Shown here piece by piece: positions 30,947-57,645 of a stretch of 64,000 bases of DNA. Source of the DNA: Turritopsis dohrnii (Eukaryota; Cnidaria; Hydrozoa; Anthoathecata; Oceaniidae); contig BQMF02000820.1 in NCBI GenBank assembly GCA_027922465.2, positions 1-64,000 on the forward strand, given 5' to 3'. Position 1 is the stretch's first letter; every line of letters begins with the position of its first letter. Both the position numbers and the translations under genes were made by a program. The notes beneath the pieces were generated by a model that worked only from the letters and a program-made list of their open reading frames with translations, searched no databases and had not been told where the DNA came from.

Positions 30947-31140
30947 ATGGTGGTCCTCAGCAAGCAGCAAAGATCTTTGACCATTTCAATAGCAATTCTG
31001 CATGACGATATTTACAAGAAAAGAAAACCGAAAAGATTAAGGCTGAGAAAGTTGTATCAAGAAAGAAAGAGTTCAGGATTTTTTCACGTACTGACAAAGG
31101 AACTGTTCGACCGTGAATACTTTTTTCGCTTGTTATACAA
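30947..31140 (+). pseudogene. PIF/Harbinger transposase N-terminal fragment
   Basis: The frame contains LRLRKLYQERKSSGFFHVLT, then KELFDREYFFRLLY. This resembles the conserved N-terminal block of Harbinger nucleases (a W..R.WL..R...G.F..L...L..D...F...). Only this start survives; the frame then runs into the tyrosine-recombinase fragment. It may be the trace of an autonomous partner for the Harbinger-type MITEs, but that is inference. Confidence 0.45.
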
Positions 31141-31149
31141 GGCAGAATA

Positions 31150-31850
31150 TCCACCCAAGAGTTTGTGAATTGTTAACCGGGATCTTTAACAACAGACCTC
31201 CTAAACCACGGTTTGTGTTTATCTGGGATGTGCAGAAGGTCTTGGATTATTTGAATAACCTACCTTCCAATGATGAATTAAATGTGAAACTTTTAACACA
31301 GAAACTTACAGCTTTGTTAGCATTGACCTCAGCATCTAAGGATCATGAAATTTGTTTCCTAAATATTGAGTACATGGTTAAAACTGAACAGAGCTACAAA
31401 TTTACTTTTGATAAGTTAACGAAGAGTTGGCGCCAGGGAAATCCCCCACTATCTATTGAGTTTACAGCTTATATTGAAAATCCTAAACTATGTGTAGTTT
31501 GCACTTTGGATGACTACCTAAAGCGAACAGCGGAACGTAGAGTTAAAGGACAGACGCAATTGCTTTTAAGTACACTTAGTCCTTATCAGGAAGTCAAAAA
31601 GTCCACCGTAGCAGGTTGGATTAAGTCAGTCCTGTCTGCAGCAGGCATTGACACTAAGTTATTTACTGCACATTCAACAAGGTCAGCCTCTTCTTCTAAG
31701 GCTTCTGTTCTTGGCATGTCTATGCAGGATATTTTGAATCGTGGTAATTGGTCTCGAGAGTCTACGTGGCAAAGGCATTACCATAATTTTGTACAAAGTG
31801 AGTCCCAGGTGTATCAAAAAGGTATAGACCTGGGTAGCGCTTTAAACTGA
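31150..31850 (+). CDS. DIRS/Crypton-type tyrosine recombinase (partial)
   Basis: The open frame runs 31113-31850 (245 codons from its first ATG); meaningful similarity starts around residue 13 (HPRVCELLTGIFNNRPPKPR). A VFIWDVQKVLDYL segment marks the start of the catalytic domain. The motif AHSTRSASSSKA supplies the H..R box, and RGNWSRESTWQRHYHNF the W/H and the nucleophilic tyrosine. The first catalytic arginine, expected in the SASxxHE segment, reads Lys (TSASKDHE), which would impair activity. The N-terminal core-binding domain is missing, and no reverse transcriptase is seen nearby, so DIRS and Crypton origins cannot be separated. GC-rich palindromes follow directly at 31860-31980. Confidence 0.75.
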
Positions 31851-34749: not shown

Positions 34750-36453
34750 AATTGAAATTTTTACCTTGATTGCATCATGGTCTGAGAATAAAATGCACTT
34801 TACCATTGTCTCAAGCTCTTTTTGATATAAACATGATCAAGTAGTGACCCATCAATATAAGTTGGCTCAGATACAACCATCTCGTAACCGCTAAGAATTT
34901 ATGAAAGAGTATCATTAGATGTAAAATAATCAATATTCACATCACCAAGCAGAATGTCAATATCAAAAGAATGGATGTAATTAGATAACTTATTGTAAAA
35001 AAGTTGCATTGGTTCACCATGTTTCCTGTACAGCACCGCAATTCCGACCAAATCACTGCAAAAAACTTTGTTTTAAAACGTTAACATATAAAAAGCCAGA
35101 TTCAGTTCAGCATGAATAAATGTCATGATTTTTTAATCTAATTGCGAAGCTCTAATGTTTATCATCTCCAACAGAAAACATTAATTCAAAATGCAGTAGC
35201 TCATATATCTCAGGCCAATCATCATGTTACGACATTTGTGTCTCAGTAAGACATAAAACATCACTCTCTACCAATTCAGTTACACAAGCAATATCTTTTG
35301 CATGCAATGACAGTAAACGAGTATTCAGCATACTGATACTTAAAGAATTCGGACACAATGGTTCAAGTGTTTCTAACCGTGTCAGTGGACAAGCTTGTCG
35401 CATCCGTTCATATTCCGTGAAAGCTCTTTTTTCGGCCTTTATGGCTTTTTTTGTCAAACTTTCCAGTTAAAAACAAGCCAGATAAACTTGTAACTCGGCT
35501 CATTGCAACGTACATTTGGCCAGGATTAAATTGCCTTTGTGTAAATCAAAACCAATAACAGCTTCAGGAACACTCAAACTCTGCACTTTATGAATACTAG
35601 TAGCCCAAGATAAAACTAAGGGAAACTGCGTTCTTGTTATTACGGGTGATTTGGTCGCTCTTTTGTTGATATTTTTTGTCTCAGAACGTTAAAATTGGTA
35701 CGCACTTATGGGTCACAGCATATCTGTCAGATGCCATTTTCATAATTCCAGCATTTTCATCAAGAAATTTAACATAAAGTTTTGTAAACTTACTACCAAT
35801 CGTCATACAATTGAATACTATGCCCATTTGGCCATTAACGAGTTTGTCCTCTATATCTATGTTCGATGTAAGTATCACTTTAGCCCCAATTTTCGAAACA
35901 AGTTTCGTCGGTAGACCACCGGTTTCAGTGTGTTTTGTGTGATCTGAATACTTACACCAAATATCTCACATAATCGCATATGAAAATTTTTGAATAGTTC
36001 ATCGGAAACCATGGATATTTCATCAGTTATCACAGCAGACACTTCCGAAAGTTTATTACGCAGAGATGTCCTCACTTTGTCGCTTAATGGTGCATAACTT
36101 TTACCATAAATACCAAGGCCGGTAGTACCTCAAATGTTTACAGCAGCTACACCTGTAGGTGCCAGCAATAAGACTCTTGGTTTTGCTGGATCTGTTGCTT
36201 TGCGAAGTAGGACCTTTGATACAACATGATATATAGTTTTCAATAAATGTGATTTTCCGCAACCACCTTGGCCTGTTAAGAAAATATGCAATGACTCTAT
36301 GTCTTTGAATTTCTTACAATTTCTTCTCTTGAGAAGTTGCCTTGACCATGTTAACGATATCAAAAATTTCTCGTTGTTTCTTATTAAGGGATCGAATCTT
36401 GTCATTTAGTACATTATCATCTAATACATACTGCCTTTCAGGGACAATCACTG
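34750..36453 (-). pseudogene. Helitron, 3' half: PIF1-like helicase plus AP-endonuclease-like domain
   Basis: From 36453 down, the frame gives LNDKIRSLNKKQREIFDIVN, the typical entry of Helitron helicases. After a frame change, 36300-36130 carries the Walker A motif GQGGCGKSHL and LLLAPTGVAAVNI; 36075-35990 has Walker B (AVITDEISMVS). 35878-35690 has the C-terminal KLVNGQMG block. The final part (35457-34750, several breaks) has ISMLNTRLLSLHAKDI...ESDVLCLTETQMS and, in another frame, LLGDVNIDYF, the signature of the endonuclease domain found at the C-terminus of Helentron-type Helitrons. Many stops show it is dead. The matching 5' half is at 46550-49523; a LINE separates the two. Confidence 0.82.
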
Positions 36454-36827
36454 ATGTTTATTTGTTTTTTTTATTTATTTTTATTTATTCTTTCTTTAAT
36501 GTTGACAAAAGTGGAATATATACAATCAAACTAAAATAAACTCCTTAGAAAATAAAATAGCAATAATGCTAATTGAAGTCAACAGTCGGTTAAAATAGCA
36601 CAACTTTCCAAAACAAAAATTGAATTTGTAAACTCGGCCCATCCCAAGGTCTCTTGGATATGGTTACCGCTTAGTGAGAAATTAAAATCTTAAGAATATC
36701 TCTACTTGGATGGTTACGCTAAGGAATAATAATGATTAAAATACAAAATACTTAAAATATATACAACAATAAATATTAATAAAAACAGCAGGCAGATATT
36801 AGACCACATGGAAAGGTTTCTGAAGCT

Positions 36828-37060
36828 ACAAGCCCCCACAAAATATTTGGGAAAAACCCCTCCCCCCTGATCTCAATGTTGTATGAAGTGCTGCAAGGCC
36901 CCCAACTGCTTATCTTCACCCCAGAAACATTCTGTTGTCTTTCAACATAAACAACATTGAATTTGGGGGCAGGGGGGACCTGTCATCTCCACTTGCAGGG
37001 GCATTTTCCCTTTTAAAACCATTTTTTTAAGTTTTCCCAATATATTTCGTGGAGGGTTGT
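36828..37060 (+). repeat. Left 233-bp terminal direct repeat
   Basis: Identical base for base, as far as I can compare, to 41002-41234. The unit itself has imperfect inverted ends: ACAAGCCCCCACAAAATAT, then TTGGGAAAA at the start, and ACAACCCTCCACGAAATAT, then ATTGGGAAAA as the reverse complement of its end. An inner perfect inverted pair TCAATGTTGT / ACAACATTGA can form a hairpin. C- and G-runs make it unlike the surrounding AT-rich DNA. Confidence 0.9.
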
Positions 37061-37403
37061 CTGAAAATTTCAAACTGAAATGCTTGATTGCTTGGCAACC
37101 GTGTGTGATAGGCCTTTGATTTTTGGTTCTGTAAACTACCATTGACATTGAAATTGCAGTGATAAAGAGTTTTTCGAAAAATCCATAATGGCGGACTTAA
37201 TTGTGACGTTTTGGCATTACACCATGTGGATCTTTTTTTTGTTGCAAAACATAAACAGTTCTTCGTATAACTAAATTGTCTGGATCATTTAAAAATAATA
37301 TTCGTGTCTCTCTCTTTCTCGAAAAACGTCTCTTTCTAAAAAAAACCCTTTTCTTTCAAATGTAAACAAAACAAGTTAGCAGTTTGATATTTCCCCCCTT
37401 TAG
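37061..37403. promoter_or_regulatory. Upstream region of the transposase gene
   Basis: Non-coding DNA of 343 bp between the left repeat and the transposase start. It contains one CCATGTGG (37222-37229), a motif found three more times upstream of Rep (40701-40708, 40867-40874, 40875-40882). It should hold the transposase promoter; no TATA box can be singled out. Confidence 0.4.
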
Positions 37404-38504
37404 ATGAAAAAAGCATATAGAAAAATTCCTTTAGAAGTGTCTATACACTTAAGATATCTGCATCAGGACAGGAACATGTCAGGAAAAGAACTTTGCAAGA
37501 TGTACCCAATGTATTCGTCGTCAACTATTTATCGACATTGTAAGAAGGCTATTCTGTCAGGCGAAGATCACGACAAGCGACACAACAACAAGGGACGTCC
37601 ACCCAAACTGACTGAAAGAGATAAGCGTGCTCTCATTCGTGAAATACCGAAGTTGCGAGATGGTGTTGGTGCATTCACCGTAAAGAAACTCCGTGTAGCT
37701 GCTGACATACGAAAAGACTTACACGACGAAACTGTCCGTCGATTTTTGCACAGCGAAGGTTACAAATATTATCATTCTCGAAAGAAAGGCCTGCTGACAG
37801 CGAAAGACTTGAAATGCCGCTCCGAATTCTGCAGAAAAATCAAAAGAGAGGGAGACATGGACTTTTGGAAGAACAAAATCGCTTTCTACCTTGACGGTGC
37901 TGGGTTCCAACACAAGTACAATCCCCTCGACGAAGCCAAGTCGTGCAGGACAATGGCATGGCGTAAAAAAGACGAGGGGCTTGAGCCGAAATGCACAGCT
38001 AAAGGTAGTCATGTTGGTTCTGGTGGTCGGGTTGCACACTTCATGGTTGGGATTAGTTATAGTAGAGGGGTAGTCCTGTGTGAACAGTATTTCGATCGAA
38101 TAAATGGTCAAAAGTTTGGGAAGTTTATAAAAGACCATTTCCCGTCAACATTTGAGAGATGTGGAAACCCACAAACACGAATGTTTTTGCAAGATGGGGA
38201 TCCTAGTCAGAACAGTAAGGCTGCCAGAGAGGCACTCGCTGAAGTAGGTGCAATTAAGTTTGATATACCAGCAAGAAGTCCTGATTTAAATCCTATAGAA
38301 AATGTTTTTAATTACGTAAAAGATAAGCTACATGAACAGGCTCTTACAGAAAATATAACTTTTGAAAGTTTCGAAATGTTTTCGGCTCGTGTTAAACTAT
38401 GTCTTCATAATGTGCCCATCAATTATATAAACAAAACTATAGAAAGTATGTATAAACGGGTAGATATGATTATACAAGCCAAAGGAAAACGTATCAAATA
38501 TTAG
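37404..38504 (+). CDS. Tc1/mariner-IS630-type DDE transposase (DD34E)
   Basis: A 366-codon intact gene. The N-terminal about 110 residues form a helix-turn-helix DNA-binding region, with the pattern SSSTIYRHCKKA (residues 38-49) and then an RPPKLTERDKRAL linker (residues 65-77) typical of Tc1-like proteins. The catalytic RNase H fold follows: D164 in IAFYLDGAGF, D264 in FLQDGDPSQNS, and E299 in SPDLNPIEN, with exactly 34 residues between the second D and E. All three catalytic residues are present. Such enzymes excise and insert DNA at TA, in agreement with the TA at the element borders. It should therefore mobilise the whole 4.4-kb unit by acting on the ends of the 233-bp repeats. It converges with the Rep gene. 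Length is normal for the family. Confidence 0.93.
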   Translation: MKKAYRKIPLEVSIHLRYLHQDRNMSGKELCKMYPMYSSSTIYRHCKKAILSGEDHDKRHNNKGRPPKLTERDKRALIREIPKLRDGVGAFTVKKLRVAADIRKDLHDETVRRFLHSEGYKYYHSRKKGLLTAKDLKCRSEFCRKIKREGDMDFWKNKIAFYLDGAGFQHKYNPLDEAKSCRTMAWRKKDEGLEPKCTAKGSHVGSGGRVAHFMVGISYSRGVVLCEQYFDRINGQKFGKFIKDHFPSTFERCGNPQTRMFLQDGDPSQNSKAAREALAEVGAIKFDIPARSPDLNPIENVFNYVKDKLHEQALTENITFESFEMFSARVKLCLHNVPINYINKTIESMYKRVDMIIQAKGKRIKY

Positions 38505-38830
38505 AAGGCAGCAGAAATAAACTGCACTACACCGCGGAGAATGAAATACAAGGTTGATGTCTTGCGCGGAATATCTCATCATCAAAACAATCGTATTTAT
38601 TAATCGCTCAAAGCTAATACTTCCGTTGAGAAACAGTTGTGGTCTCTTGAAGTGCAGTTTAAGTCGCTGCCTTGTATATTATGTATGTCATACGCTTTGT
38701 TTACATTTTGTTTATGGACTTGCGTTTAGTTACGACTGCTTCTTAGGACTTCTTGTCAGTGTAGGATGGCTCAAACGAAACAAAATGTGATGTAACAAAA
38801 ATAAAAACAGAAGTAAACAGAAGTGTTTCA

Positions 38831-39054
38831 CACGTTACACACGTTACACACACGTTACATTTGTATTTTGGTTGACTTTCCACTAAAATACTTTGTTTTG
38901 GAACACGTTACACACGTTACATCAACTTTTTTAAAAAAAACAAACATATCTCTTTTTATAAAAAAAAATGGTGTAACGTGTGTAACGTGTGAAATTCTCT
39001 ATAGATTTCTTATCAGATCAAAGTGTAACGTGTGTGTAACGTGTGTGTAACGTG
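38831..39054. repeat. Symmetric array of ten 9-mers between transposase and Rep
   Basis: Five CACGTTACA at 38831, 38840, 38851, 38904 and 38913 are followed by five inverted TGTAACGTG at 38972, 38981, 39024, 39035 and 39046, grouped 3+2 and 2+3 about a centre near 38946. They sit between the 3' ends of the two converging genes. The array is too regular for chance. By analogy with iterons of CRESS-DNA viruses it may bind Rep, or it could form a large cruciform that blocks read-through between the genes. TGATATTAC (39060-39068), one base from the geminivirus nonanucleotide, lies 6 bp beyond the array. Confidence 0.9.
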
Positions 39055-39083
39055 TAAAATGATATTACTAATTAAAAAAGAAC

Positions 39084-40436
39084 TTATAGTTCTCCCAGAA
39101 GAACCAGGTCTGCAAAACATTTGCCACACGGAACCATTTCTTTCTGCTCGTCTACAGGTATTTGTTTGAAAAAGTCAAATACACACCATCTCGCTGCCAT
39201 CATATCATTCTCGATGCTGTCGGTGGTGTTGTACGGACCTTGGTATGTAATGCGTGCCTTTCCTGTAGCCACCACTGGCACGTCACTCGATATACACAGA
39301 TCAGCTGCATAATGATTCTTTGGTGATGGCAAATGCACAGTCTGTCCTTCCAACAGCAACAACAGCTCTTTCCACGCAATCATCTCCTTATTCCATCGGA
39401 AATCGTTAAGAAAGATGACTTCAGCATTTTCGACGCCAATCCACGCGTACTTATCATTAGACGGATTAATGAAACATGAGAACAAAAATTCTAACGGCCT
39501 GAACAGGAATGTTTTGGCACAGTTAGCTGGGCCAACAATCATGACATTTCGGTTTTTGCCACGACCTTTCGTCAACAATTCACGCATCGCAGTGGCAAAA
39601 ATCACTGGATGGACCTTATTTTGTCGAAGGACTTCATCTGCACACGTAAACCATTCACCCCTGCAACCAGGAACGCAATCACCCTGTGCACGTTCTCTCA
39701 CTATTTCCATCCTCGACTTCTTCTTACGAGCCAAACAGGCATCTGCTGTCTCCATTCTCCACGTGCTTGTAATGAGTTCCTGCAGTGACTTACTGCTACG
39801 TGACAAAACAAAGTTGGCCAATTCCTTTTTACCAGCCTCCTTTTGCTGTTTGGCTAAAGCGAAAAGCTCGGTGTCGGTTTTGATGTTGTTTTCCACCAAA
39901 AACTCTCCGACATCAAGATTAGAAAGTCTTCGAGTCTTGGTCTTTGGCTGACTTGAGGTCGAAGCATCGTTATTGTTTTGTTTATGTTTTTGTTTGTATG
40001 CTTTCATGCACTGTTTTGTTTTTGGAGAGCCAATCTCTTTCAAATTTGGGTGGGTGGTACTGTGAAATACATGTTGATCATATTTCGTAACGTATTTATA
40101 CGCAGTATAATAATTTTCATGCCTGTTCGAAAAGTTCACATTTATGCCATGAGTCGCATTCAAATTATTTCTGACTGCGTTCCATCTACGTGGTCCACTT
40201 AATTTTAAGGACACATGATAGTGTTCGCCATGTTCAACATGTGGTTCCAGGGCACAAGCCCAGTACTCCACAGTAGATTTGCTCTTTCCAGTTGTGTCGA
40301 ACGCACTCTGAACTACCTGACCAAAACTTTCTCGACTGGGGAATTTGTCACGGTCAGCCTGACTATAAGTTACGAGGTATGTACGACGAGGTTTATAACA
40401 TTTGTCTGCTTGGAAGTCTTCTTGCGAGTCATTCAT
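39084..40436 (-). CDS. rep: CRESS-DNA-virus-type Rep: HUH endonuclease plus SF3 helicase
   Basis: A 450-codon intact gene. The N-terminal HUH endonuclease domain has motif I at residues 20-26 (YLVTYSQ), the metal-binding HUH at 72-74 (EHYHVSLKL) and motif III with the nucleophilic tyrosine at 115-118 (YVTK). A basic, Ser/Asn-rich linker (about 130-170) leads to a superfamily-3 helicase: Walker A at 282-289 (GPANCAKT), Walker B at 320-326 (VIFLNDF) and motif C around 367-374. One active tyrosine and an SF3 helicase are the mark of rolling-circle Reps of circular single-stranded DNA viruses; Helitrons have an SF1 helicase instead. At 450 residues it is longer than most circovirus or geminivirus Reps. 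All key residues are kept. It should nick an origin in the circular form and start rolling-circle replication. No capsid gene is present. Confidence 0.92.
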   Translation of the reverse strand: MNDSQEDFQADKCYKPRRTYLVTYSQADRDKFPSRESFGQVVQSAFDTTGKSKSTVEYWACALEPHVEHGEHYHVSLKLSGPRRWNAVRNNLNATHGINVNFSNRHENYYTAYKYVTKYDQHVFHSTTHPNLKEIGSPKTKQCMKAYKQKHKQNNNDASTSSQPKTKTRRLSNLDVGEFLVENNIKTDTELFALAKQQKEAGKKELANFVLSRSSKSLQELITSTWRMETADACLARKKKSRMEIVRERAQGDCVPGCRGEWFTCADEVLRQNKVHPVIFATAMRELLTKGRGKNRNVMIVGPANCAKTFLFRPLEFLFSCFINPSNDKYAWIGVENAEVIFLNDFRWNKEMIAWKELLLLLEGQTVHLPSPKNHYAADLCISSDVPVVATGKARITYQGPYNTTDSIENDMMAARWCVFDFFKQIPVDEQKEMVPCGKCFADLVLLGEL

Positions 40437-41001
40437 TTTGTTTTATTTTAGGTTTTGTTTACGTTATTTACTTAAAGTTTTGTTTACAAATATATGATAG
40501 GTATTTCTTCTGTTTATATTATTTTTACTTGTAGTAAGTACTTGTACAGTTATGACTATTTCTATCTTATAACACTTGCAATTTTTCACTTGTAACAGCT
40601 CAAGAGTTTTGTAGAATTTGAAATTCCCTCCAAAACTTTGTTTGTTTTCATGTGACAGATCACAAATGCAAAGGTGTGAAAAATTCAATATGGCTGTCAA
40701 CCATGTGGCAAGTGACATGCATGACCTTTTTAAACTTATATGGGATACAGTAACATCTCAAATTTGATGGTATAAACATTTGTTTATCTTTTTTAATAAT
40801 ACTGTCTGCAATCCCCTATGTCAGCTTTGCTGTGGTTCATCACATGAAAATAAATATGGCTGCCATCCATGTGGCCATGTGGATCTGTCTTGGAGCTATT
40901 AAGTCTTCATTAAGTGCCTGTGTGTTATTGGAAAGCAACATTTGGAATTCTTTTTAATATTTTGTAGGTAAACCTCTGTTTATTTGTTTTTTTGAATTCA
41001 G
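40437..41001. promoter_or_regulatory. Upstream region of Rep with iteron-like repeats
   Basis: This 565-bp stretch has two copies of a 23-bp repeat beginning AATATGGCTGYCAWCCATGT (40687-40709 and 40853-40875), with a further CCATGTGG directly behind the second (40875-40882). The direct repeats upstream of Rep resemble iterons that bind Rep next to an origin. In the circular form this region, one 233-bp repeat and 37061-37403 make one 1.1-kb divergent promoter/origin region. Confidence 0.6.
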
Positions 41002-41234
41002 ACAAGCCCCCACAAAATATTTGGGAAAAACCCCTCCCCCCTGATCTCAATGTTGTATGAAGTGCTGCAAGGCCCCCAACTGCTTATCTTCACCCCAGAA
41101 ACATTCTGTTGTCTTTCAACATAAACAACATTGAATTTGGGGGCAGGGGGGACCTGTCATCTCCACTTGCAGGGGCATTTTCCCTTTTAAAACCATTTTT
41201 TTAAGTTTTCCCAATATATTTCGTGGAGGGTTGT
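41002..41234 (+). repeat. Right 233-bp terminal direct repeat
   Basis: Identical to 36828-37060. TA follows at the outer edge (41234-41235) and there is no TA at the inner edge (CAG before ACAAG). Same inner inverted pair TCAATGTTGT / ACAACATTGA. Confidence 0.9.
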
Positions 41235-41268
41235 AGACGTATTCCACGTTTTGCATGTATGTTTTGCA

Positions 41269-44200
41269 TTACCTGCAGGGACAGTTTGTCGGTACCCAAT
41301 TTTTGATTTTCTGCTTAAATTCATTGATACTAGAGGATTCCTGTATTTCTAATGGCACTAAAGACCATATTTTAGGGGCTAAGTATGATACGGTTTCTGT
41401 TCCCCACTGAACAGTTTTTGGATTAATGTTATTATTCTCGCGGGTTCCTCTTAACTCGTAAGTGGGAACACGAAAGTCAAAAATCTCTGTAACGATTTCA
41501 GGAGAAAGGCCTTTTTTAGCCTTGTACACTTCAGTAGCTAAAAATTGAAGGTTTTTATGATGTATTGTTACAGGATTATTTCTTTGCAACAGTTCTTGAA
41601 AATTAGTCTCAAAATCGTTATAGATAATCCTCAATGACCTTTCTTGGATCCTATTAATGCGGTTATTTAGACCTCTGCTGTGATTCATCCAAATCAGGGG
41701 GCAGTAGCTGAACGGGGAAGAAACGTACGAGGTCATGAGTAATTGCTTTTTCTCAAGGTCCATGTAGGGAGCAACTCTACTAAGTGCGTGTAATTTCCGT
41801 GAAGCTGCATCACAAAGATTAGAAACATGTTTCTCAAAAGTTAATTTTTTGTCGATTGTAACTCCCAATAACTTTTGAGAATCACTGTTACGAATCCAGC
41901 TGTCTTTAACAAGAAGAGACGCATCTTCATTTACGTTTGATAAAAAGCTGCATTTATCAGAGTTAAATTTCATGCCATTATCTAAACACCACTGGGATAT
42001 GACAGCAGCTGTTTTTTCTAACTTTTGAAAAATATCTATGTCATTTTTACCGCAAATATATGGTGTATTGTCGTCAGCGTAGCTTGCAATGTCTACCTTA
42101 TCAGTGAAAAGAAACAAATCTGCAAGAAAAATATTGAAAAGGAGGGGACCTAAAATTGATCCTTGTGGTACTCCGCTTTCTACCTCTATCCAATCACTGT
42201 AAGCGAAGTTTATTTTCACTCTTTGTTCTTCCTGTAAGGTAACTACGCAATAGTTTTAATTATTTAGTGTCACATCCATAGGCATGAAGCTTTGCGATTA
42301 ACAAATCGTAATTTAACACGTCAAAAGCTTTGGATAAATCTGTTAGTAGGGCTGCGTGATGTACCTTATTATCAAGGCTTTTCTTACATTTTTCAAGCAT
42401 TGCTAATAAACAATACTGAGTATTAAAGCCTTTCTGAACCCACATTGATATTTCGAGAAAAGCAAATTGAAATAATCTTCAAGTTGTTCGTGCATGCTCC
42501 TTTCGTGAATCTCCGATAAATTAGGTAAAATGCTCACAGGTCGATAATTTTGAACATTTGATCTGTCACCTTTTTTGAAAGCAGGAGTGACATTACTAGG
42601 TTTTAGTCTGGGTGGAAAATAACACATATCATACCAGGCACGGCGCCACTGGGGGGGCTGGGGGGGCTGAAGCCCCCCCCCCCCCCCCCCCCCCCCCCCC
42701 ACATTTTTGATGAGTTAAAAAAATTTTTTTCACTGTTTCATTTTCACAACAAACAAAGCAGAAAACACAAAAGAGAAGATAATAATAGTATAATTAACGT
42801 TTTCTCATTACTTTCGGCAAGTGCGTATTTTCATTCATTCAGTAGCTCACTTTCTGCAATACAATGTCTTCACGGTCTTTGTATTACACAATTTATGCTT
42901 ACGCAAAGGAAATTTCATATTAAGTAGCGTTAGAAGTGTTGTGTAACATCAATATGTTCAATATATACAGTGTTAATCGAAAAAGCAAGTGAATAGACCT
43001 CTTCTGAATATTTCTTTATCGAACTTCACCTCGTTTTCAGGTCTATTAATAAAAACGTAAGTATTTTTGACGTTGTTATTTTATTTTGTGCTCTTTTGCC
43101 ATCGAGTAATAAAGTAATTTGCCGGATTTTATGTCATAGTGAAATTTGTACTTGTACTTGTTAAATTAGTTATCACCGCACAACCCCGAGGTATATTTCT
43201 GTCGTTTCCATTGGTTGTTTTATAAATGAGACTAGTGACTAAAATATATAACTAAAAAACATTTGCCATATTGCACTTGTCACCGTATCATAACCCTTAT
43301 TTGGTGCAAAAATCTCTTCCATATAATTAAATAAAGTGTCTTTATATTTATTTGAATAAGTCTGGGGAATGCGTTTTTAGACGTTCAAGAGGGTGCAATT
43401 TCAAAATTTTCTTCGCGTCGGACCCAACCATGGTGGGTCCTCCTACGTCACTATACCGAATGTTAAGCCCCCCCCCCCCAAATTCAATTTCGTGGCGCCG
43501 TCTCTGTAAAATTGTTTAACAAGACACTATCAAATATATCACAGTTTTCTTTTATCAGTTTTGTAGGTATATCAGAATCCTGTGAAGCCTTTTGCGGAAC
43601 TAACCTCTCTATTGCTTTTCGAATTTTCTCTAAGGAAGTATGTTTGAAAGAAAACGTTTCGCCCGTTGAATGAAATTCTTTTATTTTCTTTATGCTAGGG
43701 TGGTTTTGGTATTTTGAAATAATTTTAGAAATTTCGTCATGGGCTCCTTCGCAATCCTCTGTAAGAAGCTTTTCATTCAAAGAAATTCCTAGATTAGACA
43801 CAATACTTGTAAAATAAACATTAAATTTATTGGCAACATCTCTTTCATTGCGCACAATCTCACCATTTTCCACAAGTGTAAAGTTTTCTTTTATCAGAAC
43901 TTTATCCGAAAAAAGAGGTTTAATGGTTTTCCAAAATTTTTTAGTGTCTGTTATACTTTTTATATTAACATTATTATAGTAGTCCCGTTTCGTTTTCCTG
44001 AGAACATTGACGCACTTATTGCGCTGTTTCTTGTATTCAACCCAGCTTAGATCAGTCTTGCATCTAAGGTATCCATTTTTTAGTCTCGACCTATTCATAA
44101 TAGCTTTTTTCATTTGTTTGTTCATGAAAGGAGCATTATTACCACGTACGTATTTGCATTTTCTAGGGGCATGATTGTCCAGAACATTTAAAACCTTTTC

Positions 44201-45089
44201 AACGGTTTTCTCCATGTCTGTGCCAAGAAAGCCTTTGATATCAAGTTTTCCCATTAACTCCCCTCGAAATTTTTCATTACAGTAATTTTTATGGTTTCTG
44301 TAATAGACTTTATTCGAACCACATTTGGTAAAATGCGTTATCATAACCGTTAAGACTAGCTTATGGAAATCTGAAAGGCCCGTTTCTACCGTATGTGTGT
44401 CCTGAAAACTGAGGACTGTTTGTAACAAACAGGTCCATACATGATGGATTATCTGGATTTTAAAAGCATGTTTTGTCCTTTACAATGTTATGCAAAGCAT
44501 ACAGTTGGTTAAACTCGCTAAAAACAGGGAGAGAAGTTTCGGCATTAAAGTCTCCGAGAAGGAGGATATTATCATAACTTCCAGAATTTAGGTCCAATTC
44601 ATCTGCGAGAACCTTAAGATGACTCTCAATCAAAGATCGTTTTGGATTATACGAACAGCAAAGAAGCCACTTCTTTTTACGTAGGTTTATTTCAACAAGT
44701 AGATAATCAGCTGATTTGCAGGGAATATCCTCACGGACATATAAAAGCAGGCCTCCTCCACTCGCGTCTCTGTCTAATCTGAAAGGCTTACTAAAACCTC
44801 TCATATGAAACTGATTTTCCGGAAAACTGCTGTCGAGTTTAGTTTCAGAGATCAAGAGTATGTCTAAATTTTCATTTATTATTGATGAGAGCTGTTCAAA
44901 TTTGTTTCTTAACGAGTTGATATTGAGTTGACCAATAATAACCCTATTAAGATGTTTAATTCGAAAATTTTGAAGAGTTTTATAAATGTCAGTCTCATCA
45001 TTAGACATATTCTCGTTTTCGTTTATTAAGACCTCGTTTGAAGTGGATTTCGCAGATTTGGAATTGTTTGGATCAGTATTGGTGCACAT
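41269..45089 (-). pseudogene. LINE ORF2: AP endonuclease and reverse transcriptase (interrupted)
   Basis: Residues from 45089 give an APE-type endonuclease: IGQLNINSLRNKFEQL, LDILLISETKLD, RDASGGGLLLYVRED and ILLLGDFNAE. A frame change near 44440 leads to 44428-43484 (TGLSDFHKLVLTVM, then the linker, ending LLNNFTE). A MITE (42635-43506) interrupts here. The RT continues with FPPRLKPSNVTPAFKKGD, LTDLSKAFDVLNYDLL, GVPQGSILGPLLFNIFLADL and the catalytic ASYADDNTPY, then KLLGVTIDKKLTFEKHV to the end at 41269. Domain order and motifs fit the CR1/L2/Rex group. Frame breaks plus the insertion make it inactive. Confidence 0.9.
42635..43506. mobile_element. hAT-like MITE inside the LINE RT gene
   Basis: An 872-bp insertion between two parts of the reverse transcriptase. 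Its ends read CAGGCACGGCGCCAC and, inverted, CAGAGACGGCGCCAC, followed by G/C runs at both ends. The flanking 8 bases match only in part, so the target duplication is eroded or the borders are off by a few bases. A run of 28 C lies at 42673-42700 and a shorter one at 43469-43480. The LINE protein resumes in the expected place (LLNNFTE to YDMCYFPP). No coding capacity. Confidence 0.75.
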
Positions 45090-45273
45090 ATCTGCCTGAC
45101 AGTCCGAATCAGAAGGGATTATTTTATCTAGGGAAAAATCTACCTGCTGTTCAGCTTGTCAGCATTGCTTTTCAATAGAACGTAAAAAATTTCTGAGGAG
45201 AAGTTTTGTACCTTTTTTGTTAGTATGTAGCTTACTTCCATTCAGATGCATTGGAGGGTTCACGTTTTCGTGA

Positions 45274-46549: not shown

Positions 46550-49523
46550 GCACATGATGTATCTTGCAATTCTTCCTCATCAGACATGTCATTGTTAGTA
46601 TCTTGAACAGCCTCGTTCTCCTGTTGTGCAAATGGATTGTGATTAGCACCAAGATCTGCCCTGTAGTTTTGGAAAGCGTCATCTACTAGTTCATCATATG
46701 GTTCAATCTTTGCTTTATTTTCATTTATTATGTCCAGAACACCAGGTTGACCAAGCTTTTCGACATACGTGTTGTGTAATAGTTCTTCCTCTGATCGAAA
46801 AGAATAGTACATAAATAGCAAATGATGAGCATATCTCTCTGGCTATGTGTCTGTTTGGAATGTGATACCTTAAAACTGCACGGATTTTCCTGCATTTTAA
46901 TTTAGATTTACTTTTCATCAATGGTACAACAGGGGGTGTGATGACTGATGATTTTCATCCATTAGCAATCCGTTCAAAATTTCGGGATGGTTATCATTTT
47001 TGTTGCTGTCAGTGGGCTTAGATTCCAAGTAATAATGTGCCAAAAACTCAGCAAAAAACATGTTATTCAGAGTTGCAAACTTTCCAATTTTGAAAGAATT
47101 ATCAGGTCCGTCAAGGTAACGATCTAACATGTTTGTTTTGAAAATATCTGTATTTTCATCAGGAAGATTATTTAACTCCTCTTCAGATCTACAAATTCGA
47201 AACATTGCTGATTGCTGATGACTTTTGGGAATGTTTTACGCAACCACAATTCAGGCATTACATGATACATAGCTTCTTGCACAGAAGGTCTTTTACAGGA
47301 ATATGCTTTTGCAATAGTAAGCAGGTCCCCTTGTGATAGCAATGTATATTTTTTACGTTGGTTAGGGTTAACCTGTATAAATATAGTTTTAATAATAATA
47401 ATAATAATAACAACATTCTCTTTTACAGGAATATGCTTTTGCAATAGTAAGCATTTGTTCAAATTTGTTCAAGTTATTGGACTTTGCCTCATCCAAAGCT
47501 TGTTTCATTGCTCTGGAGCAATCATCTTCTGCCTTTGAAAGATATTTACACATGCATGTTATGGCTTTATAGTGATTGAAGACAGGCTGAATGTCCAAAT
47601 TTGCTTCTCATGCAGTCAAACCTTCTGCAAAGTAGCTGTTGACAAAACAAGAATTTGGTGGGCGTCTAAGGTGAATTTCAAAGTCATCATTTTTAGAAAT
47701 TATGCCGAGTTTATCCAAAGTTTCTGAAATAGTTCCAGCATCTTCATAATTATCTTTCAATGGATCAACAACATTACGCCTCTTAGGACATAGGTTTTCG
47801 ACGATATAACTTTTCACAGTATCTAACAGTGTTTTGCTACTTTCTAACATTGCTTCTTTGTCATCAGGGCTCACCTCAACAGGAAGTGGACTAGAAATTA
47901 TAGTGCGATCTGTTAAAAAATGACAATTGTATCTGCATGTACTATATTTGCAATTGCGACAGATTTTTGAGTGAATATGTACTTGGTATGACTTTACCAT
48001 CTCAAACAATTGTGGTTCTAATTCTGGATCAGGCATGTCATGCGATACCATCAACAAATGCAATATAATCATCCTTAGTAGCTTCCGTTAATGCAGGTGG
48101 GTCTTTTATCTAAATGAATACATGAACATGTGGGCTTCCACGTACTTGAAATTCAACCCTTATTACGTTATACTCAGCCTTTTCTAACGGACCAGATAAG
48201 ACAATTTTCTTGAGAAATGTTTCCACTCCATACTGAAAATGCCTTGCCAGAAACACAGGATTCATGTTCAATATTTCACGTCTTTCTTGGTATGTCATGT
48301 TTTGAATTTCATCATCCTGTAAATTCAGTTTATACAATTTTGACAGTATAGAAGGCAACTCGAACCACCTTAGATCTGCACATGATGATATCAAGAAAAA
48401 TGTTGGAACACCAAGTTGTTTCACCATAGCTAATACTTCAAGCAAAAATCTTTTCCAATATGCTGGGGTGCCTTTAATTTGGTTCATGAAGTTAAATGCT
48501 TCATTATTAGCAATGAAAGTCCGAACAGTTTCGCTAAATTACATCCTGATAATTTCTTCATTGCAATATTTATTTTACTATGTAAATTTGTCAGCTGAAG
48601 GACATAATTAGCAAAAAATACATAATCAGCATCAGAAGAAAATTTTTGAGTATAATTTAACAATCTCTGGTTAAAGTACTTCACAAGCGAAATTTTCATT
48701 TCCCTATCAACATCATCGTATCCAAATCTGTCAAAAGGAAATAGGTGTGGAAAAGCCATCTCTTCACAAAATTTATCTGTGTAAATTTGAATTAAAGTAA
48801 TACCTTCACCTGGTGCAATAGTAAATGTGTCTTCATTGATATGAATAGGTACTTTGGAGGCCATTACAGTTTCATTAGTAGCAGTTCTGGTTGCGTCTAA
48901 TGAATTATCATTCTCTTCATCTATTCCCTGTGAATTGCTTGAGTTCATATCAATTGGTTCATTCCCATCCTTAAAGCTGATCAGTTCTTCAAAAAGACCA
49001 TTCATATCAACAATAAGATTATTGTATAATGGGTTGTGTTCCTTCAAAAAATTTAAAGATCTCAGAATTAGCTCGGGTCGCACAGGTTCAAAGTAGCCAT
49101 GTCCACGGTACATAAGTTTTCTTTTTAATTTCAGCAAAAGTAAACCATTACTGTCAGCTGGTCTTCAGTCTCAATTGGTACATTACAAATGGCTGCTTTT
49201 ACTTTTGGAAAATTGCCTTTGAGTAGAATTACAACTTTCTTGAAAAGTATTCGTTTCGTTATCAAAACTTTCTCCAATCGGTTGATGTCAGAAAGATCGG
49301 ACGGGAGATTATCAATTTCCAGATGTTCTTGGATGTTCTTTCTTTTTAACATTAGATGACAAGTTTTAGAGATGCATTCGCAACCATCAAAGCTTTCTAC
49401 AAGTGAAAATGCAAAACTACTAGAAATAGTTGCATAATTGGATTCGTTGAATAAAACAACAGATCGTTTGTACAAACAACGATTAGAAACAACACATACG
49501 TAATAAGGTCCTTGAATAATCAT
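46550..49523 (-). pseudogene. Helitron, 5' half: N-terminal domain and HUH Rep domain
   Basis: From 49523: CVVSNRCLYKRSVVLFN and ISKTCHLMLKRKNIQ form the cysteine-rich N-terminal domain (DUF6570-like), then INRLEKVLITKRILFKKVVI. 49137-48484 continues with LMYRGHGYFEPVRPELI and EMAFPHLFPFDRFGY, the entry of the Helitron-like N domain. 48487-48110 carries GTPAYWKRFLLEVLAMVKQL, PTFFLISSCADLRWFELPSI and the HUH motif GSPHVHVFI. 47598-47460 has HYKAITCMCKYLSKAEDDC, the region of the nucleophilic tyrosines. 47205-46550 is the spacer before the helicase. Each piece is in a different frame, so the gene is dead. The helicase half is at 34750-36453. Confidence 0.85.
47289..47453. repeat. 35-bp direct duplication around a (TAA)n insert
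   Basis: The same 35 bases, containing TTTTACAGGAATATGCTTTT, occur at 47289-47323 and 47419-47453. The 95 bp between them include (AAT)n at about 47392-47410 and GGTTAGGGTTAACC. The duplicate falls in the Helitron coding region and repeats the residues LTIAKAYSCKR. A small insertion with a long target duplication, or a repair event, would explain it. Confidence 0.8.
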
Positions 49524-51364: not shown

Positions 51365-51688
51365 CTATTTCTTGCCACACCCTTTTGGTTGACAAACTTT
51401 CTTCCTCTTCTGCCCTCGAAAGGGGCCCCATTTAAAAGTCACTACCACTCGCTTGCATGAGCAACCGAACGGCCAGTTATGCCGGACAGCGCCTCTTATG
51501 ATCCGTCCAAATCTAACCAGACCGAAGTCGTGAACTAGATCTTTTAAATCGTCAAGCGTTTCATCAATTTCAGCAGCTTCATTATCCTCATCAGAACTTG
51601 ATATATCTTCTCTTAGTTGATAACAGTAAACAACTTGAATCAATACAAAAGTGATAAAAATGGTGGTTAGTTTCATGTTATATTTCAA
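51365..51688 (-). CDS. Secreted cationic four-cysteine peptide precursor (107 aa)
   Basis: An intact, single-exon frame with a clear precursor layout. Residues 1-22 are a signal peptide (hydrophobic core TTIFITFVLIQVVYC). Residues about 24-54 are an acidic pro-region rich in D and E (SSSDEDNEAAEIDETLDDL). The C-terminal half is strongly basic (RFGRIIRGAVRH, then FKWGPFRGQKRKKV) with four cysteines in the pattern C-x-C ... C ... C near the end (GCSCKRVV, VCQPKGCGKK). Acidic pro-part plus basic mature part is the usual build of cnidarian antimicrobial-peptide precursors, where the pro-part neutralises the mature peptide. I do not recognise a named family. A secreted enzyme inhibitor or other small bioactive peptide is possible. 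An AATAAA lies about 165 bp downstream. A second ATG (codon 5) could also serve. Confidence 0.7.
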   Translation of the reverse strand: MKYNMKLTTIFITFVLIQVVYCYQLREDISSSDEDNEAAEIDETLDDLKDLVHDFGLVRFGRIIRGAVRHNWPFGCSCKRVVVTFKWGPFRGQKRKKVCQPKGCGKK

Positions 51689-54183
51689 CGATATGATTTT
51701 TAAAAAGAGTTTTGATAGACTGCTAGTAGATATTGTTAATCAAAAAGTCTGAATTTTCGAGTAGTACATCAATATATTTTCTTCTTGTCTCAATCAAATC
51801 AAAATCCACGATCTGTTTAAATTTTTTTAATCTCACAATTATCTATTATGACAATTAAAGTTGAATCTACACTATGAATTAATTCTTGAGGAGAAATTAA
51901 AAAGATTAATGTTCCATCCAGTTTATTTTCATGTTCTCGCATAATTGGATTTCTGCGAAAGCAAGAAATACATTACAACCGGCTCTGTTTTTCTTTTTCT
52001 TCTTTTTCTTACTGTCCAAACCTAGCGGTTTTTTGAAAATTCATGCGTGCGGTTACATGAAACCAAAGCTCCGTGCCATGCATGTCAGCGGGAAGAAACC
52101 CTTTTAGATTTACCAAGGATTTACACAAGTGGATTTTTAAGATGAAAAACGAAAATATGTGATCGTGTTGAAATATGTGACGCTCATTTTCAGCACAATG
52201 GCTTTTATTATGTTCGATGTTCTTATTAATGTATTGTGTTCACGCACGTGGTTTTTATAACGCATGTTATTCTTTTTAGTTTTTTCGTTCGTTTGTAGTT
52301 TTTATAAGAGAGAAAAACGTATTCGTTGAACTCTGTGTGTCTGTTTTTATCAGATCGTTCTGTTCTAACTAAAACAAAATTCTCAACGTTTTGTAAACAG
52401 AAGAGTCAGAAAGGTATATATTTGTTAGTTTTTAATGGAAACATGTCTTGAGATGTCTTGAAAAGCCTGAATGAAAACATCTTTGTTTTTTTCATATATA
52501 GGCTGTTATGCTTTTTAAGCTCTGGATACTTAAGCTCAGCTCAGTTTCCTGTTAAGTTCCAACATCAAAAACGATTGTCTACTTTCTGCACCACTTACTT
52601 TTAATGTTTGATGTTTTAATGTTTTTAATATTTTATATCAGTTTTTAAGTTATACACTGTCGATAATGTCCCTTATTATGAATGGCTTTCCTAATCAGCG
52701 AATTAAACCACCTTCAACTGTAAATTCAGTGCACATGAAACATGATACAAAACTTTCCTTTCAGTTATATAATTTATGTGTGTGCTGGAGCATACTATAA
52801 GTATACGTACGTATAAGTATACTTTCAAAATCTTTATTTACTTTTTGTGTTTTCAATATTGAGAAATCCATTCATAATTAAGAAGATTGACGGTACATAT
52901 CACATGTTTAAAGAGTACGTTTAACATACGAAATCACTGATATCTGAAAAGATCAATAAAAGGTTAATATTTTGCTCCCCAGAAATATAGGATGTTTATG
53001 TCATCACACAGTATTGATTGCACTTTCCCAATGCCCTGGAGTGCCTATGAAATCAGAAATGCAATACCGTGTTGTAAATATCATTCAACCTTATTTTCAA
53101 ATTTCTTTAAGAAATTTTATAAACAGGCCACGAATGTCAACTTAGATTAAGAATGTTTGTGAGTCTATGCCATATCAATCAAACTAAAACAAAAATGTCT
53201 GATTTCAGTTATATGTTGATTTTGGTCTATGTAGTGTATTTTGCATGACCAAAATCTGTGTGCCTTTTCGTGCTTGTGATTTAGGAAGATTGACACAAAG
53301 TTATCAAATTCAGAAATTCATATCTTTTAGAGTTTATGAGTTATGTGCACATTCATTATGATATCTGCAAGGATCAATATAGCCTTGATATTGTTTCGTA
53401 CCAAAAAAATAAGTAATCCAGTTTATTGGCAGTATATACATTACAAATCTCAGATGTGTCAGTTATCGTTTGACAATGTCTTTGGGTAGTACATGATTAG
53501 AAATGTGATGTTTTATTTTGGAAATCATATAACCTCTTTCACATTTTTAGTCACATGGTCTTTTATTTTTCATTTTTCAGCAGATTTTGCAGAAATCCGT
53601 TTGCCTGTTAGGGCATCTTGTTTTATTTATTTTCTTTCTTAGGAAATGCCAGTTGAAAATATCCATAAACGAAGATAAAGATTGCATACCAGCCAAGTTA
53701 GGACAATGATATATATATCTTTATCGCTCATTTGTTCCAGTCGCGAAAAACCTACTGAAGACTCCCTGTAACTTCTGTAGCTGTTATTTTGGGTTCCTTG
53801 GTTCCACTTGTATTAGAGTCATCATTGTGAATTAAAGTGTTCTTCGGCCAAATGAGTCATATAAATAAATAGATGGATATTTTTAAAACTGGATACTACG
53901 CTAAATGTTTCAGTTTCAGAAAAATTCTAATCTAACCTGAAGTACCTATTGATGTCAAAAGAGCAAAACAAACATTAACACAGCTACTAACCAAATATAT
54001 CGATAGCTTGAGAGAGAATTCGAAGAAATCAATATTATGACTCGTTCACGTGTATATAGTTGATTCGATTGTGTTGCATGTGATATGATTGAAATATTTC
54101 TGGGTCAATAATCCCAACATCTCAATCCCACCGTTAAATATATAAAAAACACGACATTATCACGGCATTTTGGTTATAAGCTA
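51689..54183. other. AT-rich non-coding stretch
   Basis: No gene is supported. An inverted copy of the AAGATGCCCTTAC repeat lies at 53578-53632. The region just above 51688 should hold the promoter of the cationic peptide gene. Confidence 0.4.
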
Positions 54184-57309: not shown

Positions 57310-57645
57310 TTTCCTCGAGAGTTTACAAACAAGTCTCTCATGAACATTGTTGAGCGTATTCTCAAATCTTTAGATAGAGGAGAAATTGCATGTGGCATAT
57401 TTTTAGACTTACTAAAAGCTTTTGATACAGTTGATCACAAGATATTACTTGCTAAACTTAGATATTATGGAATACGTGGAAAAGCCTTGGACTGGTTTAG
57501 ATCTTTTTTGTGTAATAGGAGCCAGTATGTTTCGATTGGCCTTGTAAATCTCGCTATTCGAAAATTGTATATGGTGTTTCTCAAGGTCCAGTTCTTGGAC
57601 CGTTGCTTTTTTGATTTATATAAATGACATACATAGGGCAGTTAG
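57310..57645 (+). pseudogene. LINE reverse-transcriptase fragment
   Basis: The frame contains IVERILKSLDRGEIACGIFL and LLKAFDTVDHKILLAKLRYY, RT motif A with the catalytic aspartate. After a frame change it has GVSQGPVLGPLLFLIYINDI, motif B. Both ends are cut: it stops before the YXDD motif and runs straight into the Helitron sequence at about 57646. It is therefore a short fragment next to, or inserted into, that element. Confidence 0.85.

What the first reader, a model, noticed from the sequence alone, without database searches (positions are those of the whole stretch)
36828..41234. Hybrid element joining a CRESS-virus-type Rep with a Tc1-like DDE transposase
One 4.4-kb unit carries an intact HUH/SF3-helicase Rep with all motifs, and an intact DD34E transposase (D164, D264, E299). 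The ends are direct repeats, and there is a TA at each outer border. Rep gives rolling-circle replication; the transposase gives TA-targeted integration. Seen: the two genes, the repeats, the TAs. Known: what each family does. Inferred: that they work as one system. I know of no named element class with this pair.
Basis: partly seen in the sequence, partly recalled or inferred. Interest (0 to 1): 0.95.

Follow-up and report, generated by a model that had tools for sequence, protein, structure and literature searches.

The report
Transposon carrying a virus-like replication gene
This is a multi-copy mobile element that carries both a cut-and-paste transposase and a virus-like replication-start protein between long direct repeats, which suggests that it can copy itself as a DNA circle and also insert into chromosomes.

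Summary
In detail: two intact convergent genes (a DD34E Tc1/IS630-type transposase and a HUH/SF3 Rep) lie between identical 233-bp direct repeats with TA at both outer borders. It is not chance nesting. In the window's own genome, 24 of 25 stretches with Rep (window included) hold both genes, on opposite strands. Ten of 23 loci have flanking direct repeats of 101-258 bp. One locus is a tandem pentamer, (repeat-interior)5-repeat, with TA only at its outer ends. The repeats carry their own inverted ends, as in KolobokP. Of 16 repeat-interior junctions displayed, 15 read CAGA/TCTG instead of TA. Between the genes lies a hairpin of inverted iterons, different by family, in 13 of 14 loci examined. 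I infer that Rep amplifies a roughly 4.2-kb circle and that the transposase inserts units cut from concatemers at TA. Circles, replication and empty sites were not shown, and the transposase alone could not be searched genome-wide: the server answered only twice. Partial precedents: KolobokP (architecture), a truffle Rep-plus-transposase element, RepE1 cressviruses (Rep).

The parts
36827..36828 (.). TA at the left outer border (target-site dinucleotide)
   Evidence: TA at both outer ends in six of nine loci where I looked at both ends
36828..37060 (.). Left long terminal direct repeat (231 bp without the TA letters), with its own inverted ends ACAAGCCCCCAC... / ...GTGGAGGGTTGT
37060..37065 (.). 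Interior (INT) left terminus TCTGAA, inverted match of TTCAGA at 40997-41002
   Evidence: CTGAA / TTCAG kept in other families
37404..38504 (+). Tc1/IS630-type DD34E transposase, 366 aa, intact
38826..39059 (.). Hairpin with ten inverted iterons (five ACACGTTA, five TAACGTGT): proposed rolling-circle origin
39084..40436 (-). HUH nuclease plus SF3 helicase Rep, 450 aa, intact
40997..41002 (.). Interior (INT) right terminus TTCAGA
41002..41234 (.). Right long terminal direct repeat, 100% identical to the left one
41234..41235 (.). TA at the right outer border

Best explanation
The unit is an autonomous member of a diverse family of eukaryotic replicon-transposons. Shown: Rep and transposase genes, convergent, between long terminal direct repeats (LTDRs) that have their own inverted ends; TA outside and CAGA/TCTG inside; iteron hairpins between the genes that differ by family; apparently lone LTDR copies and multimers elsewhere in the genome. 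Inferred: Rep nicks the iteron hairpin and copies a circle of one LTDR plus the interior (4174 bp here) by rolling circle, giving (LTDR-interior)n concatemers. The transposase recognises LTDR ends, pairs two that face outward, and inserts LTDR-interior-LTDR units, or whole multimers, at TA. The internal LTDR ends lack the TA flank and carry CAGA/TCTG, which may protect the composite from internal excision. Recombination between LTDRs would release circles and leave solo LTDRs.
For: The pair on opposite strands in 24 of 25 stretches with Rep. Flanking direct repeats at ten of 23 loci, the window among them. Pentamer with TA only outside. The same internal junction in families whose Reps are about 45-49% identical to the window's. 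Inverted iteron hairpins in 13 of 14 loci examined, with iterons that differ by family. Uninterrupted Rep matches covering at least 430 residues in 14 of 102 rows. LTDR copies with sharp ends: 38 of 40 scored matches cover 1-233. Catalytic residues kept in homologues. Rep and transposase distances correlate over contig-matched pairs.
Against: No circle, replication intermediate or transposition was observed. No empty site was tested genome-wide: the server was busy for every flank query. The transposase was not searched genome-wide either, so solitary transposase copies are not excluded. Unequal crossing-over can also make a pentamer. At 13 of 23 loci no repeat pair of 80 bp or more was seen around the genes; two of these (C423, C67), near-identical to the window, show one LTDR in what could be fetched and are at least 9.9 kb long. 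No CRESS nonanucleotide (NANTATTAC) occurs in the unit. Copy L023 has lost the iteron array. Tree-based co-divergence is weaker (r 0.40, 311 of 20000 permutations) than the identity-based one.
Confidence: 0.66

Rival explanations
1. Cointegrate model: the circle integrates because the transposase carries out replicative transposition of its single LTDR, which leaves the circle flanked by two LTDR copies and a TA duplication. Rep only keeps up the circle; concatemers are not needed.
For: The product, LTDR-interior-LTDR inside one TA pair, is the same as seen. Apparently lone LTDRs with sharp ends exist.
Against: Tc1/mariner transposases cut both strands at each end in the known cases (recalled), so cointegrates are not expected. 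The pentamer needs an extra step.
Confidence: 0.16
2. Chromosomal model, as proposed for KolobokP: the element moves by ordinary cut-and-paste, and multimers and solo LTDRs come from unequal crossing-over between LTDRs. Rep acts in cis on the chromosome (for example nicking that provokes recombination or copying), without a free circle.
For: Multimers and solo repeats are explained this way, among others, for KolobokP (PMC9587614, abstract and passages). The units of the C19 array are near-identical in one place.
Against: Inverted iterons at a hairpin that differ by family are what a replication origin has. Many homologues sit on contigs of about 3.9-5.4 kb (65 of 192), near one unit, though repeat-broken assembly gives the same.
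Confidence: 0.13
3. Endogenised cressvirus with a RepE1-type Rep whose capsid gene was replaced or lost; the transposase belongs to a host transposon that captured it, and the two do not cooperate.
For: RepE1 cressviruses with capsid-like genes are reported from a sea anemone and seawater (PMC11071296, section 12). The Rep nuclease domain fits CRESS Reps.
Against: The pair is convergent, recurs across deep divergence, and shares borders and junctions within one unit.
Confidence: 0.04
4. Chance nesting or an assembly artefact at this locus.
For: Two identical repeats could in principle be an assembly loop.
Against: Seven further loci whose two repeats were looked at at both ends (four of them with TA on both sides) and one pentamer, with different flanks.
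Confidence: 0.01

Closest known systems
KolobokP (Kojima and Bao 2022, PMC9587614; abstract and passages read)
   Same: Interior flanked by long terminal direct repeats that have their own short inverted ends; solo repeats; multimers (LTDR-INT)n-LTDR; DDE transposase in the interior.
   [quoted passage not shown] here a Tc1/IS630 transposase, TA borders, a HUH/SF3 Rep and an iteron hairpin. The phrase 'Rep protein' does not occur in that paper's main text.
Geminivirus-like transposon of Tuber melanosporum (Liu et al. 2011, PMC3198968; passages and section 8 read)
   Same: A ssDNA-virus-like Rep and transposase ORFs in one repetitive element.
   Different: Geminivirus-like Rep, 37-bp TIRs, no obvious target duplications, interrupted or truncated ORFs, fungus; no LTDRs, iterons or transposase family stated in the section read.
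RepE1 cressviruses (preprint PMC11071296; passages and section 12 read)
   Same: Small elements whose Rep resembles papillomavirus E1, one apparently circular (Cress4414), one from a sea anemone with contigs joining it to cnidarian sequence; names such as Cress4479 presumably give the length.
   Different: They carry capsid-like genes; no transposase is reported in the section read. Sequences were not compared here.
DENSOV_HM of Hydra (Repbase entry, as cited in PMC3198968)
   Different: No transposase reported in that section; sequence not available here.
Teratorn (PMC10175614; passages read)
   Same: Transposon-virus fusion; its authors propose that rolling-circle concatemers give units flanked by two transposon copies, which then integrate by transposition.
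   Different: 180 kb, herpesvirus plus piggyBac; unrelated genes.
Tc1/mariner and IS630 transposons
   Same: Transposase fold, DD34E triad, TA borders, inverted ends.
   Different: Those carry one gene between two inverted ends (recalled); here there are two genes, long direct repeats and an origin-like hairpin.
Helitrons (recalled)
   Same: HUH Rep plus helicase in a eukaryotic transposon.
   Different: SF1 Pif1-type helicase, no DDE transposase, no TIRs or TSD (recalled).

Membership tests
Tc1/mariner-IS630 superfamily (transposase) | DDE_3 domain with Tc3-type HTH and DD34E triad | tested here: met
   Pfam above cut-off; D/D/E in 119/120/119 of 121, spacing 34 in 118; Mos1 and Sleeping Beauty top folds; IS630 model E 1e-21 but 77.7 bits, below its cut-off of 100
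Tc1/mariner-IS630 superfamily (element) | TA target-site duplication | tested here: inconclusive
   TA on both sides in six of nine loci with both outer ends looked at; duplication not proven, no empty site
Tc1/mariner-IS630 superfamily (element) | Single gene between two simple inverted ends | tested here: not met
   Two genes, direct repeats with nested inverted ends
KolobokP | LTDRs with own inverted ends, solo LTDRs, multimers | tested here: met
   Inverted ends; LTDRs; multimer; apparently lone LTDRs (40 of 347 candidates scored)
KolobokP | Kolobok transposase | tested here: not met
   Transposase is Tc1/IS630 type
KolobokP | His-Me finger nuclease | tested here: inconclusive
   No Pfam match in six small ORFs of the unit at E 0.1; shorter ORFs were not scanned
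Cressdnaviricota (CRESS viruses) | HUH nuclease with motifs I-III plus SF3 helicase | tested here: met
Cressdnaviricota (CRESS viruses) | Capsid gene | tested here: not met
   Only the Rep and transposase ORFs of the unit have domain matches; six smaller ORFs have no Pfam match
Cressdnaviricota (CRESS viruses) | NANTATTAC-type nonanucleotide at a stem-loop | tested here: not met
   Absent from 36828-41234 on both strands; the hairpin has an AT-rich loop
Helitron | Rep fused to SF1 (Pif1-type) helicase | tested here: not met
Tuber Rep-transposase element | Geminivirus-like Rep and 37-bp TIRs | not testable with these tools

The most novel reading that the evidence does not exclude
A distinct, widespread class of eukaryotic mobile DNA, a replicon-transposon, that couples rolling-circle replication by its own HUH/SF3 Rep at a family-specific iteron hairpin to TA-directed insertion by its own Tc1-type transposase. 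The concatemers rebuild the paired long repeats, and the TA-less CAGA/TCTG internal junctions keep the composite from falling apart. By gene content it sits between RepE1 cressviruses (capsid in place of transposase) and DNA transposons.
Probability: 0.5. Interest if true: 0.95.

Novelty: new variant of a known kind. Interest (0 to 1): 0.86.

Why it matters
It would be a eukaryotic DNA transposon with its own replication origin and initiator, explaining how a cut-and-paste element multiplies and how composite long-repeat transposons keep both repeats (a question raised for KolobokP). It also gives a concrete sequence case for virus-transposon traffic: a comparable Rep stands beside a capsid gene in RepE1 cressviruses and beside a transposase here.

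Tried and rejected
Rejected: chance nesting; Helitron; Kolobok transposase.

Led nowhere: IMG/VR scans with Rep, with a Rep alignment and with a transposase alignment gave no relatives; GTDB genome contigs none; phage records none; plasmid records were not searched; Rfam none at gathering threshold in 36000-42000; sequence search of the PDB only weak matches. Ten searches of the open-licence PMC library did not show this element in the titles and abstract starts listed, nor did the passages of the five papers I opened (PMC3198968, PMC6668415, PMC9587614, PMC11071296, PMC10175614). So absence from print is not established; Repbase was not searchable.

Results against or weak: co-divergence by tree distances is weaker than by identity. 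Contig-length matching is indirect; matches under 2.6 kb are chance because both genes cannot fit, and one 4093-bp Rep length matched two transposase clusters. Hairpin z-scores use only 20 crude two-letter-block shuffles. The empty-site check against the stretches held gave no spanning match, as expected since those stretches are other loci. My notebook entry miscounts 25 of 26; the correct count is 24 of 25.
Full report
What is there. The unit spans 36828-41234. Two 233-bp direct repeats, identical at all 233 positions, enclose a transposase gene (37404-38504, +) and a Rep gene (39084-40436, -), which converge on a 579-bp intergenic stretch. The outer borders are TA on both sides. No other copy of either gene, and no other strong match to the repeat, lies in the 64-kb window.

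Recurrence in the same genome. The window is the first 64 kb of contig C820 of a 436-Mb assembly. A Rep search gave 102 match rows (94 of 124 candidates scored); 14 rows cover at least 430 residues with no stop. I fetched 27 stretches, 24 of them chosen for a Rep row, mostly the top-scoring ones, so not a random sample. With the window, 25 stretches matched Rep and 24 of these also held the transposase, on the opposite strand; L016 has Rep only. The 25 stretches are 23 loci (three cover the C19 array). Three pairs share flanks and may be alleles or duplicates: L018/L019, L021/L022, L015/L016. Direct repeats flank the pair at the window, C112 (125 bp), C466 (184), C156 (233), C286 (245), C701 (244), C406 (258 aligned columns, running a little past the repeat end), C54 (101) and C9 (245) and in the C19 array (203 bp): ten of 23 loci. 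The other 13 showed no repeat pair of 80 bp or more around both genes in the stretches held. The transposase was not searched genome-wide, so this count starts from Rep alone.

Borders. Where both outer ends were looked at (nine loci), TA stands on both sides at six: window, C466, C156, C286, C9 and C19. At C701, C112 and C406 one end is changed or truncated. The C423 and C67 copies have different flanks, each with TA at the one end seen, and share at least 9.9 kb at 99.5%; they are a larger variant whose other end could not be fetched. The junctions between repeat and interior differ from the outer ends: of 16 displayed for eight loci, 15 read CAGA or TCTG where the outer ends have TA (the exception is a truncated repeat at C112), and so do the ten of the C19 array. 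The families concerned have Reps about 45-49% identical to the window's, C156 excepted, which is a close relative. The two repeats of a copy differ at 0 of 233 (window), 0 of 184, 0 of 245, 0 of 245, 1 of 244, 4 of 125 and 30 of 233 positions; C406 and C54 stand at about 97%. So several insertions look recent and C156 old.

Multimer and lone repeats. On C19, six repeats spaced 4058, 4065, 4058, 4058 and 4058 bp form (LTDR-interior)5-LTDR over 20,500 bp, with TA at the two outer borders and CAGA/TCTG at the five internal repeat-interior steps. With the window's repeat as query, 40 of 347 candidates were scored; 38 of these 40 cover positions 1-233. Apart from the window, C67 and C423, 17 of the remaining 36 lie in sets on one contig with spacings of mostly about 1.9 kb (C635, C761, C127, C461, part of C175; others 1.4 and 3.0 kb). 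Spacings near 1.9 kb are too short for both genes, so these are probably non-autonomous multimers; the other 19 stand alone among the 40.

Origin-like hairpin. Between the two stop codons lies an inverted array of ten iterons around an AT-rich loop (38826-39059). Folded as DNA, 38800-39075 has z -10.2 against 200 shuffles. I examined 14 of the 22 loci with both genes; 13 have such an array, with iterons that differ by family: CACGTTACA (window, C423), CACGTCACC (C466), CGCGTTACC (C383, C112, C19, C54), ATGCGTCGC (C286, C701, C406, C9, four copies each), CATGTCACA or GGTGTGACA (C271, C547); C156 has lost it. So the 13 are about five iteron types, not 13 independent cases. Loops of three types share a pyrimidine run (TCTCTT), a lead for the nick site and no more. 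A changing iteron beside a changing Rep is what one expects of initiator and origin; this is inference from known rolling-circle systems.

Elsewhere. Two Rep searches and one transposase search of 5.8 billion proteins gave 393, 378 and 1509 homologues, of which the best 120 each are listed; the only organism named in the listings is the octocoral Paramuricea clavata. Of 73 listed transposase clusters with longest contig of 2.6 kb or more, 16 have exactly the longest-contig length of one of 192 Rep clusters (null mean 1.5, maximum 8 in 5000 draws); of 23 at 10 kb or more, 6 do (null mean 0.02, maximum 1). Distances of Rep and transposase correlate over 15 pairs, the window among them (r 0.53, 3 of 20000 permutations; without the window r 0.52, 5 of 20000), more weakly on trees over 16 pairs (r 0.40, 311 of 20000). 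Of the 192 Rep clusters, 65 have a longest contig of 3.9-5.4 kb, consistent with a discrete unit of that size, circular or repeat-collapsed.

Mechanism. Shown: the anatomy above. Inferred: Rep starts rolling-circle copying of a 4174-bp circle at the hairpin; concatemers present LTDR-interior-LTDR units whose outward ends the transposase cuts and inserts at TA. Teratorn's authors propose the same step for herpesvirus concatemers (PMC10175614, passages). Why internal ends are not cut is open; CAGA/TCTG in place of TA is my candidate.

Comparison. KolobokP has the same long-repeat architecture with other enzymes (PMC9587614, abstract and passages). A truffle element joins a geminivirus-like Rep with transposase ORFs (PMC3198968, section 8). 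RepE1 cressviruses have a comparable kind of Rep with capsids (PMC11071296, section 12). None of these, as read, has all the features. Because the parts have precedents I rate it a new variant of a known kind, and keep the reading as a new class open.

Noticed in passing
window 41269-45155 (-): A non-LTR retrotransposon with RVT_1 and Exo_endo_phos matches lies just right of the unit; the unit sits about 35 bp downstream of its RT stop codon, so other copies of this LINE may serve as empty sites.
   Followed up: partly
window 48484-49161 and 57581-58405 (-): Two DUF6570 (Helitron-associated, recalled) fragments, one at E 2e-17, one weak and below cut-off.
   Followed up: no
window 36130-36405 (-): PIF1-like helicase fragment of 91 aa, below the Pfam cut-off, near the left border.
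   Followed up: no
window 31095-31850 (+): Tyrosine recombinase-like ORF, Phage_integrase match below cut-off, perhaps a Crypton or DIRS relative.
   Followed up: no
window 51365-51736 (-): Small secreted-looking cationic cysteine-containing protein with an apparent signal peptide and acidic pro-region, no Pfam match; may be an antimicrobial-type peptide.
   Followed up: no
L009 3609-10000 with L029, and L010 3590-10000 with L030: Larger variant of the window's element (at least 9.9 kb shared at 99.5%) at two sites with different flanks; the extra sequence beyond window position 37345 was not identified.
   Followed up: partly
G000 C635, C761, C127, C175, C461, C28: Repeated LTDRs at spacings of mostly about 1.9 kb (others 1.4 and 3.0 kb): probable non-autonomous multimers.
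   Followed up: no
L015 about 2426 and 3765: Two LTDR outer ends face each other with reverse-complementary flanks (GAGCAGGCACTCTA / TAGAGTGCCTGCTC), suggesting a local inverted duplication.
   Followed up: no
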